Of a stretch of 64,000 nt of DNA, positions 24,398 through 60,389 are shown one piece after another. The translations under genes and the position numbers were made by a program. Source of the DNA: Cherax quadricarinatus (lineage: Eukaryota > Arthropoda > Malacostraca > Decapoda > Parastacidae); NCBI RefSeq assembly GCF_038502225.1, contig NW_027196463.1, positions 1-64,000 of the forward strand. Direction: 5' to 3'. Every line of letters starts with the position of its first letter. Within the stretch, counting starts at the first letter, position 1. A model generated the notes under the pieces. The model had not been told where the DNA came from. It ran no database searches and saw nothing but the letters and a program-made list of their open reading frames with translations.

Positions 24398-25194
24398 TGC
24401 CGGAAAAAAAATCCCCCCCCCAGTACCAACAATACGTCCGATAACATTCTTCTTTGCAAATATACAGGGTCTAAAGCCAGCAACAAACAACAAAATACCT
24501 TTCATCCGTGGACTGCTTGCAGAGGCAAAGGCAATGTTCGCGGCTTTCACTGAGACCCACATAAAGGATCACTTGGACAACGAAATATGGATCCCACGTT
24601 ACAACAGGCAAAAGGGGGAGGTTGGCCTGTACATTGCAGAGTCACTTGTTTGCACAGAACTGCTTAATGCCTCAAATGATGTAGTGGAAGTTTTAGGAGT
24701 AAAGGTCGAGAACCAAAACCTAGTCATTGTGGTAGTCTACAAGCCTCCGGATGCAACATCCCAGCAATTCCAGGAACAGCTGTTAAAAATTGACCACTGT
24801 CTGGAAAATCTTCCAGCTCCTGCACCCAGCATCTTGCTCCTGGGGGATTTCAACTTAAAGCACCTAAAATGGAGGAATATAGCAAATAATATTGCTGCAG
24901 TAATAACACCAGGAGGCAGCTCTGATGAAAACTCACACTCACACGAGCTTTTAAATCTCTGCACAAAATTCAATTTAAACCAGCAAATAATAGAGCCTAC
25001 TAGACTGGAGAATACACTAGACCTCATCTTCACTAACAATGATGATCTGATAAGAAATGTCACCATATCAAAAACAATATACTCAGATCACAACATAATT
25101 GAGGTTCAGACATGTATGCGTGGAGCCCCAGACCGACATAATGAGACTAGTTGATAAATTAGACACATATGCAACTCTTGGGTATCTTTATTGA

Positions 25195-25229
25195 GGAAAC
25201 GTTTCGCCACACAGTGGATTCATCAGTCC
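25195..25229 (-). ncRNA. Hammerhead-like motif A1
   Basis: Minus strand: stem I GGA/TCC, core CTGATGAA, stem II loop TGT, then GAAA and CGTT. Base 10.1 of stem II is changed (T instead of G), so this copy is probably weakened. Confidence 0.6.
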
Positions 25230-25566
25230 ATACGTAGGAGAAACTTGAAGAACAGGAGGAGAATGAGGTAATCAGTCCCTCAACCTTGAGTCGATGTGTT
25301 CAGTCCATCAATCTTGAATAGAATACGGCATATCAGCGGAGAAGCAGCTTATAAACCGTATGGCAGGAGAGGTGCAGCAGTCATAGGTCGTGTCACATTT
25401 GTTCAATGTGGAAGTAGGTCGTGCCCAAGAATTAGGCAAGCGAAGAATTCCTAAGTATTAAGATCCCAAGAAGTTGCAGTGTCTGACAGATTTGTAGATG
25501 AATGGTTCAGAGAACCGACATGTTGATAAATTAGACACATATGCAACTCTTGGGTATCTTTATTGA

Positions 25567-25601
25567 GGAAACGTTTCGCCACACAGTGGCTTCATCAGTC
25601 C
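25567..25601 (-). ncRNA. Hammerhead-like motif A2
   Basis: Same as A1 but with stem II intact (GCCAC/GTGGC). Stem I GGA/TCC and core CTGATGAA...GAAA are present. Confidence 0.65.
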
Positions 25602-25966
25602 ATACGTAGGAGAAACTTGAAGAACAGGAGGAGAATGAGGTAATCAGTCCCTCAACCTTGAGTCGATGTGTTCAGTCCATCAATCTTGAATAGAATACGG
25701 CATATCAGCGGAGAAGCAGCTTATAAACCGTATGGCGGGAGAGGTGCAGCAGTCATAGGTCGTGTCACATTTGTTCAATGTGGAAGTAGGTCGTGCCCAA
25801 GAATTAGGCAAGCGAAGAATTCCTAAGTATTAAGATCCCAAGAAGTTGCAGTGTCTGACAGATTTGTAGATGAATGGTTCAAGATTGATGGACTGAACAC
25901 ATCGACTCAAGGTTGAGGGACTGATTACCTCATTCTCCTCCTGTTCATCAAGTTTCTCCTACGTAT

Positions 25967-26001
25967 GGACTGATGAAGCCACTGTGTGGCGAAACGTTTC
26001 C
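25967..26001 (+). ncRNA. Hammerhead-like motif A3
   Basis: Stem I 5' strand GGA (25967-25969); core CTGATGAA (25970-25977); stem II GCCAC-TGT-GTGGC (25978-25990); GAAA (25991-25994); short self-complementary ACGT stem III; predicted cleavage after T25998; stem I 3' strand TCC (25999-26001). AATAAA follows at 26004. One extra A lies between A9 and stem II compared with the usual CUGANGA core. Confidence 0.7.
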
Positions 26002-28395
26002 TCAATAAAGATACCCAAGAGTTGCATATGTGTCTAATTTATCAACATGTCCGTTCTCTGAACCATTCATCTACATAATGAGACTAGTCACGAGGGAGGA
26101 TTCACCAAATTCAACTTCAATAACAAAAACATAAAGTGGGACCAAGTAAACCAATTCCTAACCGATATAAGCTGGGAAGATATACTAAGCAACACAGACC
26201 CCAACTTATGCCTAGAACAGATTAACTCGGTGGCACTCGATGTTTGCACAAGGCTTATTCCTCTAAGAAAAAGGAGGAGTAGATGTAAAATAGAAAGAGA
26301 CAGGCGCTCCCTTTACAGGCGAGGGAAAAGAATAACAGAGCGGCTAAAAGAGGTCAATATATCTGAAATGCGTAGGGAGACACTGGTCAGAGAAATAGCA
26401 AGCATCGAACTTAAGCTAAAAGAATCCTTTAGGAGTCAGGAATCGCGGGAAGAACTAAAAGCCATAAATGAAATCGAAAGAAACCCAAAGTATTTCTTCT
26501 CCTATGCCAAATCAAAATCGAGAACAACGTCCAGTATTGGGCCTCTACTTAAACAAGATGGGTCCTACACAGATGACAGCAAGGAAATGAGTGAGCTACT
26601 CAAGTCCCAGTATGACTCAGTTTTTAGCAAGCCGCTAACCAGACTGAGAGTCGAAGATCAAAATGAATTTTTTATGAGAGAGCCACAAAATTTGATTAAC
26701 ACAAGCCTATCCGATGTTATTCTGACGCCAAATGACTTCGAACAGGCGATAAATGACATGCCCATGCACTCTGCCCTAGGGCCAGACTCATGGAACTCTG
26801 TGTTCATCAAGAACTGCAAGAAGCCCCTATCACGAGCCTTTTCGATCCTACGGAGAGGGAGCATGGACACGGGGGTCGTCCCACAGTTACTAAAAACAAC
26901 AGACATAGCCCCACTCCACAAAGGGGGCAGTAAAGCAACAGCAAAGAACTACAGACCAATAGCACTAACATCCCATATCATAAAAATCTTTGAAAGGGCC
27001 CTAAGAAGCAAGATCACCACCCATCTAGAAACCCATCAGTTACACAACCCAGGGCAACATGGGTTTAGAACAGGTCGCTCCTGTCTGTCTCAACTATTGG
27101 ATCACTACGACAAGGTCCTAAATGCACTAGAAGACAAAAAGAATGCAGATGTAATATATACAGACTTTGCAAAAGCCTTCGACAAGTGTGACCATGGCGT
27201 AATAGCGCACAAAATGCGTGCTAAAGGAATAACAGGAAAAGTCGGTCGATGGATCTATAATTTCCTCACTAACAGAACACAGAGAGTAGTCGTCAACAGA
27301 GTAAAGTCCGAGGCAGCTACGGTGAAAAGCTCTGTTCCACAAGGCACAGTACTCGCTCCCATCTTGTTCCTCATCCTCATATCCGACATAGACAAGGATG
27401 TCAGCCACAGCACCGTGTCTTCCTTTGCAGATGACACCCGAATCTGCATGACAGTGTCTTCCATTGCAGACACTGCAAGGCTCCAGGCGGACATCAACCA
27501 AATCTTTCAGTGGGCTGCAGAAAACAATATGAAGTTCAACGATGAGAAATTTCAATTACTCAGATATGGTAAACATGAGGAAATTAAATCTTCATCAGAG
27601 TACAAAACAAATTCTGGCCACAAAATAGAGCGAAACACCAACGTCAAAGACCTGGGAGTGATCATGTCGGAGGATCTCACCTTCAAGGACCATAACATTG
27701 TATCAATCGCATCTGCTAGAAAAATGACAGGATGGATAATGAGAACCTTCAAAACTAGGGAGGCCAAGCCCATGATGACACTCTTCAGGTCACTTGTTCT
27801 ATCTAGGCTGGAATATTGCTGCACACTAACAGCACCTTTCAAGGCAGGTGAAATTGCCGACCTAGAAAATGTACAGATAACTTTCACGGCGCGCATAACG
27901 GAGATAAAACACCTCAATTACTGGGAGCGCTTGAGGTTCCTAAACCTGTATTCCCTGGAACGCAGGAGGGAGAGATACATGATTATATACACCTGGAAAA
28001 TCCTAGAGGGACTAGTACCGAACTTGCACACGAAAATCACTCACTACGAAAGCAAAAGACTTGGCAGACGATGCACCATCCCCCCAATGAAAAGCAGGGG
28101 TGTCACTAGCACGTTAAGAGACCATACAATAAGTGTCAGGGGCCCGAGACTGTTCAACTGCCTCCCAGCACACATAAGAGGGATTGCCAACAGACCCCTG
28201 GCAGTCTTCAAGCTGGCACTGGACAAGCACCTAAAGTCAGTTCCTGATCAGCCGGGCTGTGGCTCGTACGTTGGTTTGCGTGCAGCCAGCAGCAACAGCC
28301 TGGTTGATCAGGCTCTGATCCACCAGGAGGCCTGGTCACAGACCGGGCCGCGGGGGCGTTGACCCCCGGAACTCTCTCCAGGTAAACTCCAGGTA

Positions 28396-44780: not shown

Positions 44781-45355
44781 TTAGAACATAAGAACATAAG
44801 AAAGAAGGAACACTGCAACAGGCCTACTGACCCATGCAGAGCAGGTCCATGTCCCCCCCACCCCTCGGATTAGACCAATGACCCACCCCCCGGATTATCC
44901 AAATGACCCACCCAGTCTGGTCATCCCCACTCAAGGATGGAGCACTGTTCCAGACCCAGCAGCGCAAGCTAGTCAGGTTCAACTCACACCCACCCAAGTA
45001 TTTATCTAACCTATTTTTAAAACTACACAACGTTTTAGCCTCAATAACTGTACTCGGGAGCTTGTTCCACTCATCCACAACTCTATTACCAAACCAGTAC
45101 TTTCCTATATCCTTCCTGAATCTGAATTTTTCCAACTTGAAACCATTGCTGCGAGTCCTGTCTTGGCTGGGAATTTTCAGCACACTATATACATCCCCTT
45201 TATTTATTCCTGTTTTCCATTTATACACCTCGATCATATACCCCCTAATTCTATGTCTTTCGAGAGAGTGCAGAATCAGGGCCTTCAGTCTATCCTCATA
45301 GGGAAGATTTCTGATACATGGGATCATCTTTGTCACCCTCCTTTGTACGTTTTCA
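44781..45355 (-). mobile_element. CR1-A minus copy, 3' end
   Basis: It starts with the CR1 terminal repeat ATAAGAACATAAGAAAG and 3' end. On the minus strand it encodes ENVQRRVTKMIPCIRNLPYED through KYWFGNRVVDEWNKLPSTV to LDKYLGGC (45350-45000). ENVQRR is exactly the residue block that follows where the copy at 50247 ends (DINAL), so the two are halves of one element split by CR1-B. Confidence 0.82.
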
Positions 45356-45508
45356 TAAGAACATAAAAACATAAGAAAGGAGGAACACTGCAGCAGGCCT
45401 GTTGGCCCATACTAGGCAGGTCCTTTACAATTCATCCCACTAACAAACATTTGACCAACCCAATTTTCAATGCCACCCAAGAAACAAGCTCCGATGTGCA
45501 AGTCCCTC

Positions 45509-48500
45509 TCAAATCCAACCCCTCCCACTCATGTACTTGAACATTAAAATGGTATAAAATACCGACAGATTGTTAGGTAAGACACATATGCAACAGTTAG
45601 GTATCTTTATTTCGAAACGTTTCGCCTACACAGTAGGCTTCTTCAGTCGAGTACAGAAAAGTTGATAGAAGCAGAAGATACTTGAAGACGATGTAATCAG
45701 TCCATCACCCTTCAAGTATCTTCTGCTTCTATCAACTTTTCTGTACTCGACTGAAGAAGCCTACTGTGTAGGCGAAACGTTTCGAAATAAAGATACCTAA
45801 CTGTTGCATATGTGTCTTACCTAACACTCATGTACTTATCCAACCTAAATTTGAAACTACTCAAAGTCCTAGCCTCAATAACCCAACTAGGTAGACTGTT
45901 CCACTCATCAACTACCCTATTTCCAAACCAATACTTTCCTATGTCCTTTCTAAATCTAAACTTATCTAATTTAAATCCATTACTGCGGGTTCTCTCTTGG
46001 AGAGATATCCTCAAGACCTTGTTAATATCCCCTTTATTAATAACTATCTTCCACTTATACACTTCGATTAGGTCTCCCCTCATTCTTCGTCTAACAAGTG
46101 AATGTAACTTAAGAGTCTTCAATCTTTCTTCATAAGGAAGATTTCTAATGCTATGTATTAATTTAGTCATCCTACGCTGAATGTTTTCTAACGAATTTAT
46201 GTCCATTCTGTAATATGGAGACCAGAATTGAGCTGCATATTCTAGGTGAGGCCTTACTAATGATGTATGGAAATAAATGGTATAAAATACCGACACAATG
46301 GCAATATAAACACAAATGCAGTATAATGTGATCTTTTATTGACTACGTTTCGCCCACACAGTGGGCTTTTTCAAGTCACAAACAGAACTACCTGGGGTGG
46401 AAGGAACGCGAGTATTTATAGTCCAGCTGAGGTCAGGTGAAGAATGCTGCATCTGATGATGTACCGAGTGGGGTTATAGAGTCTAAAAACTTTCCAAGCT
46501 ACCCAAGTTTTTAGACTCTATAACCCCACTCGGTACATCATCAGATGCAGCATTCTTCACCTGACCTCAGCTGGACTATAAATACTCGCGTTCCTTCCAC
46601 CCCAGGTAGTTCTGTTTGTGACTTGAAAAAGCCCACTGTGTGGGCGAAACGTAGTCAATAAAGGATCACATTATACTGCATTTGTGTTTATATTGCCACT
46701 AATGATGTATAAAGCTGCAGTATGACCTCTGGACTTCTGTTCCTTACACTTCTTGATATAAATCCCAGTAATCTATTTGCCTTATTACGTACGCTTAGGC
46801 ATTGCTGTCTTGGTTTAAGGTTGCTGCTTACCATAACCCCCAAGTCCTTTTCGCAATCTGTATGGCTAAGTTCTACATTATTTAACTTATAAGTGCTAGG
46901 GTTATGGACACTCCCGAGCTTCAGAACCTTGCATTTATCTACATTGAACTGCATCTGCCACTTTTCTGACCAAGAGTAGAGTTTGTCTAAATCCTCCTGA
47001 AGTTCCCTAACATCTACGTTTGAATCAATTATCCTACCTATCTTCGTGTCATCGGCGAATTTGCTCATATCACTAGTAATTCCTTCATCAAGATCATTGA
47101 TATATATTATAAACAACAACGGGCCCAAGACTGATCCCTGTGGAACGCCACTTGTTACTGATCCCCACTCGGATTTAACCCCATTTATGGACACTCTCTG
47201 CTTCCTGTCTGTGAGCCATGATTCGATCCACGAGAGCACCTTTCCCCCAATGCCATGAGCTGCTACTTTCTTCAACAGTCTTTGGTGCGGAACTCTATCA
47301 AATGCCTTACTAAAATCTAAGTAAACAATATCAAATTCTTTATCGTGGTCAACAGCCTCAAAAGCTTTACTGAAGAAAGTTAATAAATTAGTTAGACAAG
47401 ACCGGCCTCTTGTGAATCCATGCTGAGTATCCTTAATCAAGCTATGCTTATCGAGATGGCTTCTTATACTCTCAGCTATAATTGACTCTAGTAATTTGCC
47501 TACAATTGAGGTCAGGCTTATTGGGCGGTAATTTGACGGTAACGACTTGTCCCCTGTTTTAAAAATAGGAATTACATTAGCCATCTTCCACATATCAGAC
47601 ACTACACCTGTTTGAAGAGATAAATTAAAAATATTAGTTAATGGTTCACAGACTTCAATTTTGCATTCCTTAAGAACCCTGGAAAAAACCTCATCAGGAC
47701 CCGGTGACTTATTTTGCTTCAGTCGGTCTATCTGCTCCACAACCATTTCACTAGTGACTGTGATGTTACATAATTTATCTTCTTCTGATCCACTATAAAA
47801 ATTAATTACCGGAATATTATTAGTGTCTTCCTGTGTAAAAACCGAGAGAAAATAATTATTTAAAATCGAGCACATTTCATTCTCTTTGTCAGTAAGATGC
47901 CCATAGTTATTTTTAAGGGGACCTATCTTATCTCTGACTTTTGTTCTATAGACTTGGAAAAAACTTTTTGGGTTAGTTTTAGAATCCCTAGCAACTTTAA
48001 TTTCATAGTCCCTTTTAGCTTTTCTTATCCCCTTTTTAATGTCCCTCTTAATGTCAATATACTGATTCATAAGATGACCCTCGCCTCTTTTGATACGCCT
48101 ATAAATTCCTTTCTTATGCCCTAGTAGATATTTCAGCCTATTATTCATCCATTTTGGGTCATTTCTATTTGTTCTAATTTCCTTATAAGGGATAAACGTT
48201 CTTTGAGCAGCATGCATTGTGTTCAGAAAACTGTCATATTGATAGCTCTCTTCGTTACCCCAGTCAACAGATGATAAGTGTTCTCTAAGCCCATCGTAAT
48301 CTGCTAAGCGAAAATCTGGGACTGTTACTGAGTTATCCCTACTATCATACTTCCATTCAATTCTAAATGTAATTGATTTGTGGTCGCTAGCACCCAGTTC
48401 CTCTGAAACTTCTAAATTATTAACAAGAGATTCATTGTTTGCCAGAACTAAGTCAAGCAGGTTATTACCCCTTGTAGGTTCTCTCACAAACTGCTTCAGA

Positions 48501-58818: not shown

Positions 58819-59445
58819 GTTAAAGTGAAAGATGTGTATGCTGCTGTGGACGCTGGTGGTAGTGGGTGTTAGCAGCGAGGGACTGATGGTGGCAGCAGAT
58901 GACACCACTGCCAATGCTAATTTTCCTGAGCTCTTCTGGGCAGGACTTGGCTTCCAAAACCGAAACTGTCGTGAACTGCAAGAGCATGGTCACAAGACCA
59001 GTGGAATATACACCATCTATCCACATGACTGCTGCCCCAAACGTCCTGTCCGTGTCTACTGTGATATGGACACTAATAAAGGAGGATGGACTGTTATCCA
59101 GCGTCGCGAAGATATTCTGCCAAAGGAAGACTTTTACCGCACCTGGATGGAGTATGCTTTAGGCTTTGGTAATCTCTCCGGCGAGTTCTGGCTTGGCCTT
59201 GAACATATCCATGCCCTCACTGATCAAACTCTCAACCAGATACGATTTGAATTAACGGATTTCGACAACAGCACCCGGTGGGCACAGTACCAATTCTTTT
59301 ATGTCCATGACAGGAGCTCCTTATTCAAGGTAGAAGTTAATGGTTACACTGGAGATGCTGGTGATGGCTTCAGTAACGTCAACGATCTGAAGTTCTCTGC
59401 GAAGAATTACGATCTAGACACTTCTCCAGAAAACTGTGCTGTATT
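58819..59445 (+). CDS. Fibrinogen-related secreted lectin, exon (partial gene)
   Basis: The coding start is ATG 58832, 13 bases after a good splice acceptor, so an upstream non-coding exon is expected. Residues 1-16 are a hydrophobic signal peptide. A fibrinogen-related domain starts near residue 45: NCRELQEHGHKTSGIYTIYP, Cys77 in VYCDMDTNKGGWTVIQRR, GEFWLGLEHIHALT, then the DAGDGF and FSAKNYDLDTSPENCA blocks. A donor GTATGT at 59446 ends the exon just after ENCAVL. In this family the calcium-binding and ligand-pocket end follows ENCA, and it is not in the window. Proteins of this type (ficolins, techylectins) bind acetylated sugars on microbes in innate immunity. Reading on past the donor gives a false stop. 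Confidence 0.9.
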
Positions 59446-60389
59446 GTATGTTAAACCCATTTACACTTATTTACTAGTGTTTTAAATATGAACATAATAT
59501 CAGTAATTAGTAATTGCTTGAACAGATACTGCCAATGGAAAAAAATATAAATAGGTTTAGTGTTATTTAAGAATATTTATGTTCGGTAACACCTAAACAC
59601 TAAATTGTAGAGACTCTAATTTCAAAATCAGCTTTTGCTTGAATTTTTTTTTTTTTAGTCTAGAGAAAGAAATACAGATCATATAAATATTTCGTCTTGG
59701 AGAATGCAGCTTAGAAGAATCATAATCAAATTAGTCCTCAGAAACAATGACGCAAAATTCTAAAAATGTATTTAACATATTCCAACATTCTTACTCCAGT
59801 AGTAATCCGGGACTTATTATTGAAGGTTTGAATCCAGTCAGGAGAAGCTTTCTCAAGCCTCTGTATGGAAATAAAAATCTGGAATTCTTCATAATATTTG
59901 CAAGTGGATGCCTATCACTCCAATAGTTCCAAGAACTTTCCACTACTTATAGATCTTCATTATTGAATGAGGAGTTCTATATTACAAATAACACAAATTA
60001 GTAGAAGAAAAGACCATAAAATTTTTGTGATTTTCTCACATACGAGGTGAAGCAAATTTCTTGTTCAGGTTAGGTGAGGTTAGCATGTCCTCTGTGAATA
60101 TAAATAACGAATTATAACCTACGACACCTGAAAAAATATAAATACAAGATAAAGGTGATAAAAAATTATGCAGTATTAAGAGGAAACATCACTCATCAAG
60201 AGCAATAGAAGTAATAAAGTGAGATTTTCACTGTTTAAGGAACTTTTATCAGTCACACATTTGACTGTCTTGACAACAGTGAAATGATGTCGGCATGAGT
60301 GTGTTATACTAGAATTATGAAAGCTGTCTTGGACATCCTTGAGAATAGTTTGGAGAAATATTTTTATTGTTTAAAGCAAAATTATGATA
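59446..60389 (+). other. Intron, nothing recognised
   Basis: AT-rich; no exon with the WWY, or the C-terminal fibrinogen motifs, was found on either strand. Confidence 0.6.

What the first reader, a model, noticed from the sequence alone, without database searches (positions are those of the whole stretch)
25151..26074. Hammerhead-ribozyme-like motifs in a non-coding tandem/inverted element
Directly seen: three copies of GGA-CTGATGAA-GCCAC-TGT-GTGGC-GAAA-CGTT-TCC (A1 with one change), each followed by AATAAA. This is the type I hammerhead layout with minimal stem III. The ACGT there is self-complementary, so two units in tandem or inverted order could pair as a dimeric ribozyme. There is one extra A after CUGAUGA; from memory, the chrysanthemum chlorotic mottle viroid hammerhead has an extra A at the same place and is active. 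Tandem units with short-stem-III hammerheads are known from Penelope-like elements and retrozymes; this element has no protein gene. The two minus-strand units followed by one plus partial unit is an unusual layout.
Basis: partly seen in the sequence, partly recalled or inferred. Interest (0 to 1): 0.9.

Follow-up and report, generated by a model that had tools for sequence, protein, structure and literature searches.

The report
Crayfish Penelope passenger with hammerhead-like ribozymes
A short non-coding jumping gene in a crayfish genome carries small hammerhead-type ribozyme motifs and appears to be moved by an abundant Penelope-type retrotransposon that carries a related ribozyme motif.

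Summary
Three hammerhead-like motifs, each followed by AATAAA, lie in a 921-bp insertion (25152-26072) flanked by a perfect 16-bp target-site duplication and interrupting a LINE frame. Two diverged relatives lie at 45539-45824 and 46269-46697. Stem I and the catalytic core pair 3-8 (C-G or U-A) covary across families. The genome also holds a very abundant Penelope-like element (PLE) whose start codon follows the same module: hammerhead, AATAAA, 30-nt tail. Best reading: a non-autonomous PLE mobilised in trans; the odd layout is the known PLE inverted layout. In 27 of 29 two-armed insertions judged one end starts at a short and one at a long initiation site; 2 fit loosely; 9 two-armed A loci without clear duplication were left out, one of them short/short. 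Self-cleavage and circular RNA are untested, stem III exists only as a dimer, and Rfam scores far below threshold. A new member of a known kind, with two unusual regularities.

The parts
25136..25151 (.). target-site duplication, left copy (ACATAATGAGACTAGT)
   Evidence: identical to 26073-26088
25152..26072 (.). element A: inverted two-armed insertion; left arm antisense 25152-25881 (1.96 units), right arm sense 25878-26072, joined at a 4-nt overlap TTCA
25195..25229 (-). hammerhead A1 (one stem II change), position 17 at 25198
25187..25192 (-). AATAAA after A1
   Evidence: read
25567..25601 (-). hammerhead A2, position 17 at 25570
25559..25564 (-). AATAAA after A2
   Evidence: read
25967..26001 (+). 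hammerhead A3: stem I GGA/TCC, core 25970-25976, extra A 25977, stem II 25978-25990, GAAA 25991-25994, palindrome ACGT 25994-25997, position 17 at T25998
26004..26009 (+). AATAAA after A3
   Evidence: read
26045..26072 (+). PLE-type tail between the short and long ends (hairpin GTTC-TCT-GAAC)
   Evidence: the two end positions recur across loci
26073..26088 (.). target-site duplication, right copy
24534..25151 (+). LINE reading frame, endonuclease part, interrupted by A
   Evidence: PF14529 2.3e-15; joining the flanks gives a 963-aa open frame
26089..28362 (+). LINE reading frame, reverse transcriptase part
   Evidence: PF00078 1.3e-29
45539..45824 (.). element B, diverged relative, inverted; long end left, short end right
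   Evidence: duplication CACTCATGTACTT 45526-45538 / 45825-45837
45747..45785 (+). hammerhead B1 (CUGAAGA; stem I UCGA/UCGA)
45612..45650 (-). hammerhead B2
46269..46697 (.). element C, diverged relative, inverted; long end left, short end right
   Evidence: duplication ACTAATGATGTAT 46256-46268 / 46698-46710
46619..46657 (+). hammerhead C1 with U3-A8 core pair (UUGAAAA; stem I UGAC/GUCA)
46340..46378 (-). hammerhead C2 with U3-A8 core pair

Best explanation
The insertion is a non-autonomous Penelope-like element (a retrozyme-like PLE passenger) of 372-nt units. Each unit carries the PLE module: a minimal dimer-type hammerhead, AATAAA, and two reverse-transcription start sites about 30 nt apart. 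Inferred cycle: the RT/GIY-YIG protein of an autonomous PLE binds the unit RNA, cuts both target strands with a stagger that gives duplications of 11-16 bp, and primes one cDNA from the short site on one strand and one from the long site on the other. The two cDNAs are then joined, mostly at a few nt of microhomology, giving head-to-head arms. Arms run through the ribozyme cleavage site and up to nearly three units, so the template was an uncleaved multimer or a religated circle. The hammerhead, completed when two copies pair through ACGU, is inferred to cut multimers to unit length. Shown by sequence: anatomy, duplication, two end points, covariation, homology to the PLE start region. Inferred: trans mobilisation, ribozyme catalysis, circles.
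For: Duplication and restored 963-aa LINE frame. Changes on both sides in 5 of 11 pairs (stem I, stem II, core pair), reached by 0 of 500 shuffles, none when slid. Of 144 motifs in the window and 67 fetched loci, 142 have C-G or U-A at 3-8. Genome counts: C3-G8 121,917 (backward control 1), C3-A8 4,411 (control 1). The only ribozyme match by Rfam is hammerhead III, sub-threshold, with the extra A as an insertion. A PLE with YVDD and GIY-YIG has 65,536 first-look candidates (evidently a cap), 140 scored; listed open frames reach 805 residues. Its first ATG follows hammerhead, AATAAA and tail; a collinear 140-nt block, 65% identical, E 4e-11, links it to the unit. Ends: 16 of 16 two-armed A loci with a duplication have one short and one long end; B, C and A' too; 8 of 10 autonomous pairs strictly, 2 loosely. 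Published PLE tail and both-strand priming.
Against: No cleavage, circular-RNA or transcript data. Rfam scores 16.4 bits against a threshold of 48.5; B and a PLE copy match no hammerhead model even at E 10. A monomer has no closed stem III loop; stem I is only 3 bp in family A, and its fourth pair forms in only 9 of 21 variants. In the anole PLE the ribozyme needed protein, its mutants did not affect insertion, and no reads began or ended at the cleavage site, so the ribozyme may not serve insertion. Of 40 distinct A loci 15 are not two-armed as called here, and of the 9 two-armed ones without a clear duplication one has two short ends (L068) and 7 have at least one end elsewhere. A duplication was found in only 3 of 10 autonomous pairs. 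The PLE found carries the U3-A8 motif, not A's C3-G8, so A's own partner may be another PLE.
Confidence: 0.82

Rival explanations
1. The hairpin module is conserved only as a binding or start signal for the PLE protein; it looks like a hammerhead by descent but no longer cleaves RNA.
For: In the anole PLE, ribozyme mutants still insert and cleavage needs protein. Stem III is minimal and Rfam is far below threshold or silent. A C3-A8 core sits in one otherwise intact copy (L048), and 4,411 such motifs exist in the genome.
Against: The 3-8 core pair is kept along with the stems: 142 of 144 motifs have C-G or U-A there (the pattern itself fixed UGA, AAG and CGAAACGU), and the U3-A8 swap is reported as natural and active in vitro (PMC3088659 section 8).
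Confidence: 0.3
2. The element is moved by a LINE of the same genome, as a SINE-like passenger, not by a PLE.
For: LINE-type frames are frequent in the window, and element A sits in one.
Against: No poly(A) is seen at either end of A; inverted head-to-head arms and two end points 28-34 nt apart match the PLE tail, and the PLE of the genome shows the same ends.
Confidence: 0.05
3. The inverted layout arises by self-priming (fold-back copying) rather than by two separate primings.
For: Proposed for rotifer PLEs with palindromic junctions (PMC3846280 passages); elements B and C are near-symmetric, with 22 and 12 nt between their arms.
Against: In 15 of 16 A loci with a duplication the two inner ends differ by more than 30 nt, and the outer ends differ (short and long) in all 16; simple fold-back copying would give equal ends.
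Confidence: 0.12

Closest known systems
Penelope-like elements with minimal hammerheads (PMC11167929 parts 1-2 of 4 read; PMC3846280 and PMC6155905 passages; Cervera 2014 and Lunse 2017 seen only as cited titles, not held)
   Same: minimal hammerhead near the start of the frame, inverted and tandem copies, target-site duplication, 30-40 bp tail between two start sites, both target strands primed
   Different: no reading frame; 372-nt unit; strict pairing of one short and one long end in the two-armed copies with a duplication. Whether the extra A is usual in PLE hammerheads was not checked
Metazoan non-LTR retrozymes (PMC7229834, sections 13, 14, 17 read)
   Same: small non-coding unit in the 150-450 bp range, tandem copies, duplications longer than 4 bp, crustaceans named among hosts, PLEs suggested as movers
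   Different: minimal PLE-type hammerhead in place of the canonical one; inverted arms; PLE tail; circles not shown
Hammerheads with U3-A8 core pair (PMC3088659, section 8 read)
   Same: the same natural swap of the 3-8 pair
   Different: here in several families and in the autonomous PLE: 31 of 32 motifs in 28 PLE loci

Membership tests
hammerhead ribozyme, minimal PLE type | core CUGANGA ... GAAA with a 3-8 pair | tested here: met
   C-G or U-A in 142 of 144 motifs; one extra A after A9 in all 21 variants
hammerhead ribozyme, minimal PLE type | stem I and stem II with covariation | tested here: met
   stem I pairs 1-3 only, pair 4 forms in 9 of 21
hammerhead ribozyme, minimal PLE type | stem III | tested here: inconclusive
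   only the palindrome ACGU without loop: possible as a dimer, not as a monomer; the search patterns required it. PLE hammerheads are described as usually lacking helix III (PMC6155905 passage)
hammerhead ribozyme, minimal PLE type | Rfam gathering score (a curators' threshold, not a biological definition) | tested here: not met
   16.4 against 48.5 for A; none for B and a PLE copy
hammerhead ribozyme, minimal PLE type | self-cleavage | not testable with these tools
   needs transcripts
Penelope-like element (non-autonomous) | inverted and tandem repeats with target-site duplication | tested here: met
Penelope-like element (non-autonomous) | tail of about 30 nt between two end points | tested here: met
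   28, 34 and 31 nt in A, B, C (counted); two clusters of ends; 30 nt in the PLE
Penelope-like element (non-autonomous) | sequence shared with an autonomous PLE of the genome | tested here: met
   140-nt block, 65% identical, E 4e-11
Penelope-like element (autonomous) | RT and GIY-YIG reading frame | tested here: not met
   no frame of 150 aa or more inside the element; hence filed as non-autonomous only
metazoan non-LTR retrozyme | small non-coding unit of 150-450 bp with type I hammerhead | tested here: met
   372 nt; hammerhead of the minimal form, not the canonical one
metazoan non-LTR retrozyme | circular RNA | not testable with these tools
   no RNA data

The most novel reading that the evidence does not exclude
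PLE insertion is a two-sided reaction in which each target strand is obligatorily primed from a different one of the two start sites, so one complex (perhaps a protein dimer on one RNA, or on a ribozyme-paired RNA dimer) sets both ends. The dominant PLE of this genome has, besides, fixed a U3-A8 hammerhead core, and small ribozyme passengers with over a hundred thousand motif copies ride on this machinery.
Probability: 0.42. Interest if true: 0.75.

Novelty: new member of a known kind. Interest (0 to 1): 0.57.

Why it matters
Which retroelement moves animal retrozymes is left open in the paper read here, with PLEs named a strong candidate (PMC7229834 section 17). This element ties a retrozyme-sized passenger to a PLE by a shared module and shared end points, in a genome where both are abundant enough to test. 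The short-plus-long end rule is a simple, checkable constraint on the poorly known PLE insertion mechanism. The C-G to U-A swap of the catalytic pair is natural covariation inside a ribozyme core.

Tried and rejected
Rfam at gathering score found nothing in the window; a mir-199 match at E 8.5 was taken as chance. Exact-pattern scans of the viral and bacterial collections gave 2 and 37 hits; about 35 are expected by chance in the bacterial one from its size (own estimate, no call). Between core and GAAA 27 of these 39 folded to no structure and 12 to stems of -0.4 to -6.0 kcal/mol. They were taken as chance and not used. A paper search for six stretches of the motif found none. A looser scan of the window (one core mismatch allowed) was not selective: 20 random windows gave 0-4 hits; it was replaced by the stricter descriptor. 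MAFFT placed the stem II gap of A one column off, so pairs of stem II with gaps were set aside. A cluster of long-site arms of about 400 nt was seen but not used: the 381-nt query selects such arms. Target flanks oriented by short and long end gave no clear motif beyond a T at the primer end. PDB search with the PLE piece: no match. Genome counts for U3-A8 and U3-G8 were asked for but did not complete. Lunse 2017 and Cervera 2014 are not held. Read at first as a broken core, element C turned out to have the U3-A8 swap.

Full report
What is there. The three motifs exist as described; AATAAA follows each. They sit in a 921-bp insertion, 25152-26072, between two perfect copies of a 16-bp target-site duplication. 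Joining the flanks with one duplication copy gives a single open frame of 963 residues, with LINE endonuclease and reverse transcriptase domains on either side, so this is an insertion into a LINE. The left arm holds 1.96 units of 372 nt on the minus strand, the right arm about half a unit on the plus strand, with both sense 3' ends facing outwards. The arms overlap by 4 nt at the centre. Three letters differ between the copies: one private to A1, one private to A3, one at a place that only two copies cover.

Relatives in the window. BLAST of the element found a second site at 45548-45817 (73-87%), and a repeat scan a third, around 46275-46698. Both are inverted, both have 13-bp duplications, and both carry two hammerhead motifs. 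Element C reads UUGAAAA in the core, which at first looked broken; but positions 3 and 8, which pair in the hammerhead, have changed together from C-G to U-A. Perreault et al. report this swap in nature and state that ribozymes with it had already been proven active in vitro (PMC3088659, section 8 read).

Covariation. On the seven motifs of the three elements (4 distinct rows) 5 of 11 pairs have changes on both sides; none of 500 shuffles reaches this and no slid version has any; of the five measures one (further pair types) was reached by 9 of 500 shuffles. A scan that left position 3, position 8 and stem I free, over 201,477 bases of window and fetched loci, found 113 motifs in 21 distinct variants: stem I pairs 1-3 form in 20, 20 and 21 of 21, pair 4 in 9 of 21, core pair 3-8 in 19 of 21; stem II was required by the scan; all have the extra A, which was not required; joint shuffles of stem I 1-3 and the core pair, 0 of 5000. 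The same kind of scan of ten random sequences of 195,858 bases gave 0 hits. Related sequences inflate such numbers; the clearest statement is by family: A, B, C, D and E have different stem I sequences, all pairing over at least 3 bp. Over the window and 67 loci (246,624 bases), 98 motifs are C-G, 44 U-A, 1 C-A and 1 C-C. In the whole genome of 3.95 billion bases, the C3-G8 pattern occurs 60,733 + 61,184 times (control, pattern read backwards: 1 + 0) and the C3-A8 pattern 2,190 + 2,221 times (control 1 + 0). Counts for U3-A8 and U3-G8 could not be obtained. These are motif copies of all families that fit, not insertions.

Against. Rfam 15 has no match at gathering score in the window. On a short stretch, hammerhead III scores 16.4 bits against a threshold of 48.5 (E 0.35), with the extra A as an insertion; B and a PLE copy give no hammerhead match at E 10. 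Stem III is only the palindrome ACGU, without a loop; as a dimer it can form 4 bp. For the A monomer the hammerhead fold has -9.8 kcal/mol against -10.6 for the best fold.

The mover. One fetched locus held a frame with YVDD and a GIY-YIG-like domain (PF01541 18.3 bits, below its cut-off of 22.6). Of 102 related proteins found, many are marked RVT_1 and 12 GIY-YIG; the best are from Cherax quadricarinatus, and the contig lengths of P0001, P0004 and P0072 equal those of C32, C36 and C55 of the window's genome, which identifies the species by inference. In that genome the fragment has 65,536 first-look candidates (evidently a cap), 140 scored, 274 matches, with open frames up to 805 residues among those listed. 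Among the places listed there, close pairs (under 5 kb) count 13 head-to-head, 0 tail-to-tail and 1 direct (my reading of a list that is not complete). The open frame runs through the module, and its first ATG lies just after a U3-A8 hammerhead, AATAAA and a tail with hairpin GGTA-ATTC-TACC. A's unit shares a 140-nt collinear block with this region, from the hammerhead through the tail to the PLE start codon; beyond it, no further significant match was found.

The ends. Of 41 A loci fetched (40 of 1,086 first-look candidates scored, best first; one overlapping locus dropped), 40 are distinct; 25 are two-armed and 15 are not. 18 of the 40 have a duplication of 11-16 bp; 16 of these are two-armed, and all 16 have one end at unit position 360-3 (short) and one at 26-38 (long). 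The nine two-armed loci without such a duplication are mixed: one long/short, one short/short, seven with at least one end elsewhere. B and C and an 85% relative, A' in L081, also have one of each. Of the 13 head-to-head pairs of the autonomous PLE I fetched the outer ends of 10: 8 have one of each strictly, 2 have a long end plus an end 11 or 15 nt from the short site; a duplication was found for 3. So 27 of 29 judged are strict. In the anole PLE, reverse transcription starts at two sites that bound the genomic tail, both target strands are cut and extended, and no difference in start site between strands was seen in vitro (PMC11167929, parts 1-2 read). An optional tail at one of the inverted repeats is described for PLEs (PMC3846280, passages). 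That the two ends of one insertion take different sites this regularly I did not see in the passages read; I did not search print for it.

How it was copied. In 15 of 16 loci with a duplication the inner ends differ by more than 30 nt, which argues against fold-back copying; junction overlaps are 1-5 nt in 19 of 25 two-armed loci. Each arm of the 16 loci (87 nt or longer) crosses the hammerhead cleavage site, which lies 46 nt from the short end, and one locus without duplication has an arm of 1,081 nt, 2.9 units. The template was therefore not cut at that site: an uncleaved multimer or a religated circle. In the anole, ribozyme mutants insert normally in vitro, so the ribozyme's place in the cycle is inference. 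Cervera and de la Pena name autonomous PLEs as a strong candidate mover of animal retrozymes and crustaceans among the hosts (PMC7229834, sections 13, 14, 17 read); up to 120,000 retrozyme copies in the axolotl stand in a heading of that paper.

Verdict. A non-autonomous PLE, or PLE-type retrozyme, in a decapod: ordinary in kind, unusual in abundance, in the natural core-pair swap and in the regular pairing of two start sites. On checking, confidence was lowered slightly because the excluded and loosely fitting loci are now counted openly.

Noticed in passing
L081:4836-6218: A unit of family A ends at its long site directly against a 5'-truncated PLE frame, without a duplication found, as if the reverse transcriptase had switched from PLE RNA to A RNA at that site.
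   Followed up: partly
45568-45829 and 46299-46698: Elements B and C are nearly symmetric palindromes with 22 and 12 nt between the arms, unlike most of the A loci.
   Followed up: partly
L048:2381-2595 and L081:6353-6963: Elements of this group lie beside or in PLE copies; A' has its own duplication AACCTATTTTTATGT.
   Followed up: partly
24534-28362: Apart from insertion A the LINE reading frame is open over 963 residues, so A is probably young.
   Followed up: yes
58832-59485: Fibrinogen-related protein frame (PF00147, 6e-45), the only host-type gene piece noticed in the window.
   Followed up: no
L073, minus strand, position 2548 counted on the reverse complement: A hammerhead-like motif with C-C at positions 3-8 and no stem I, followed by AATAAA: a decayed relative or chance.
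   Followed up: no
44800-44848 and 45375-45423: Dispersed repeat, 82% between two copies, next to element B.
   Followed up: no
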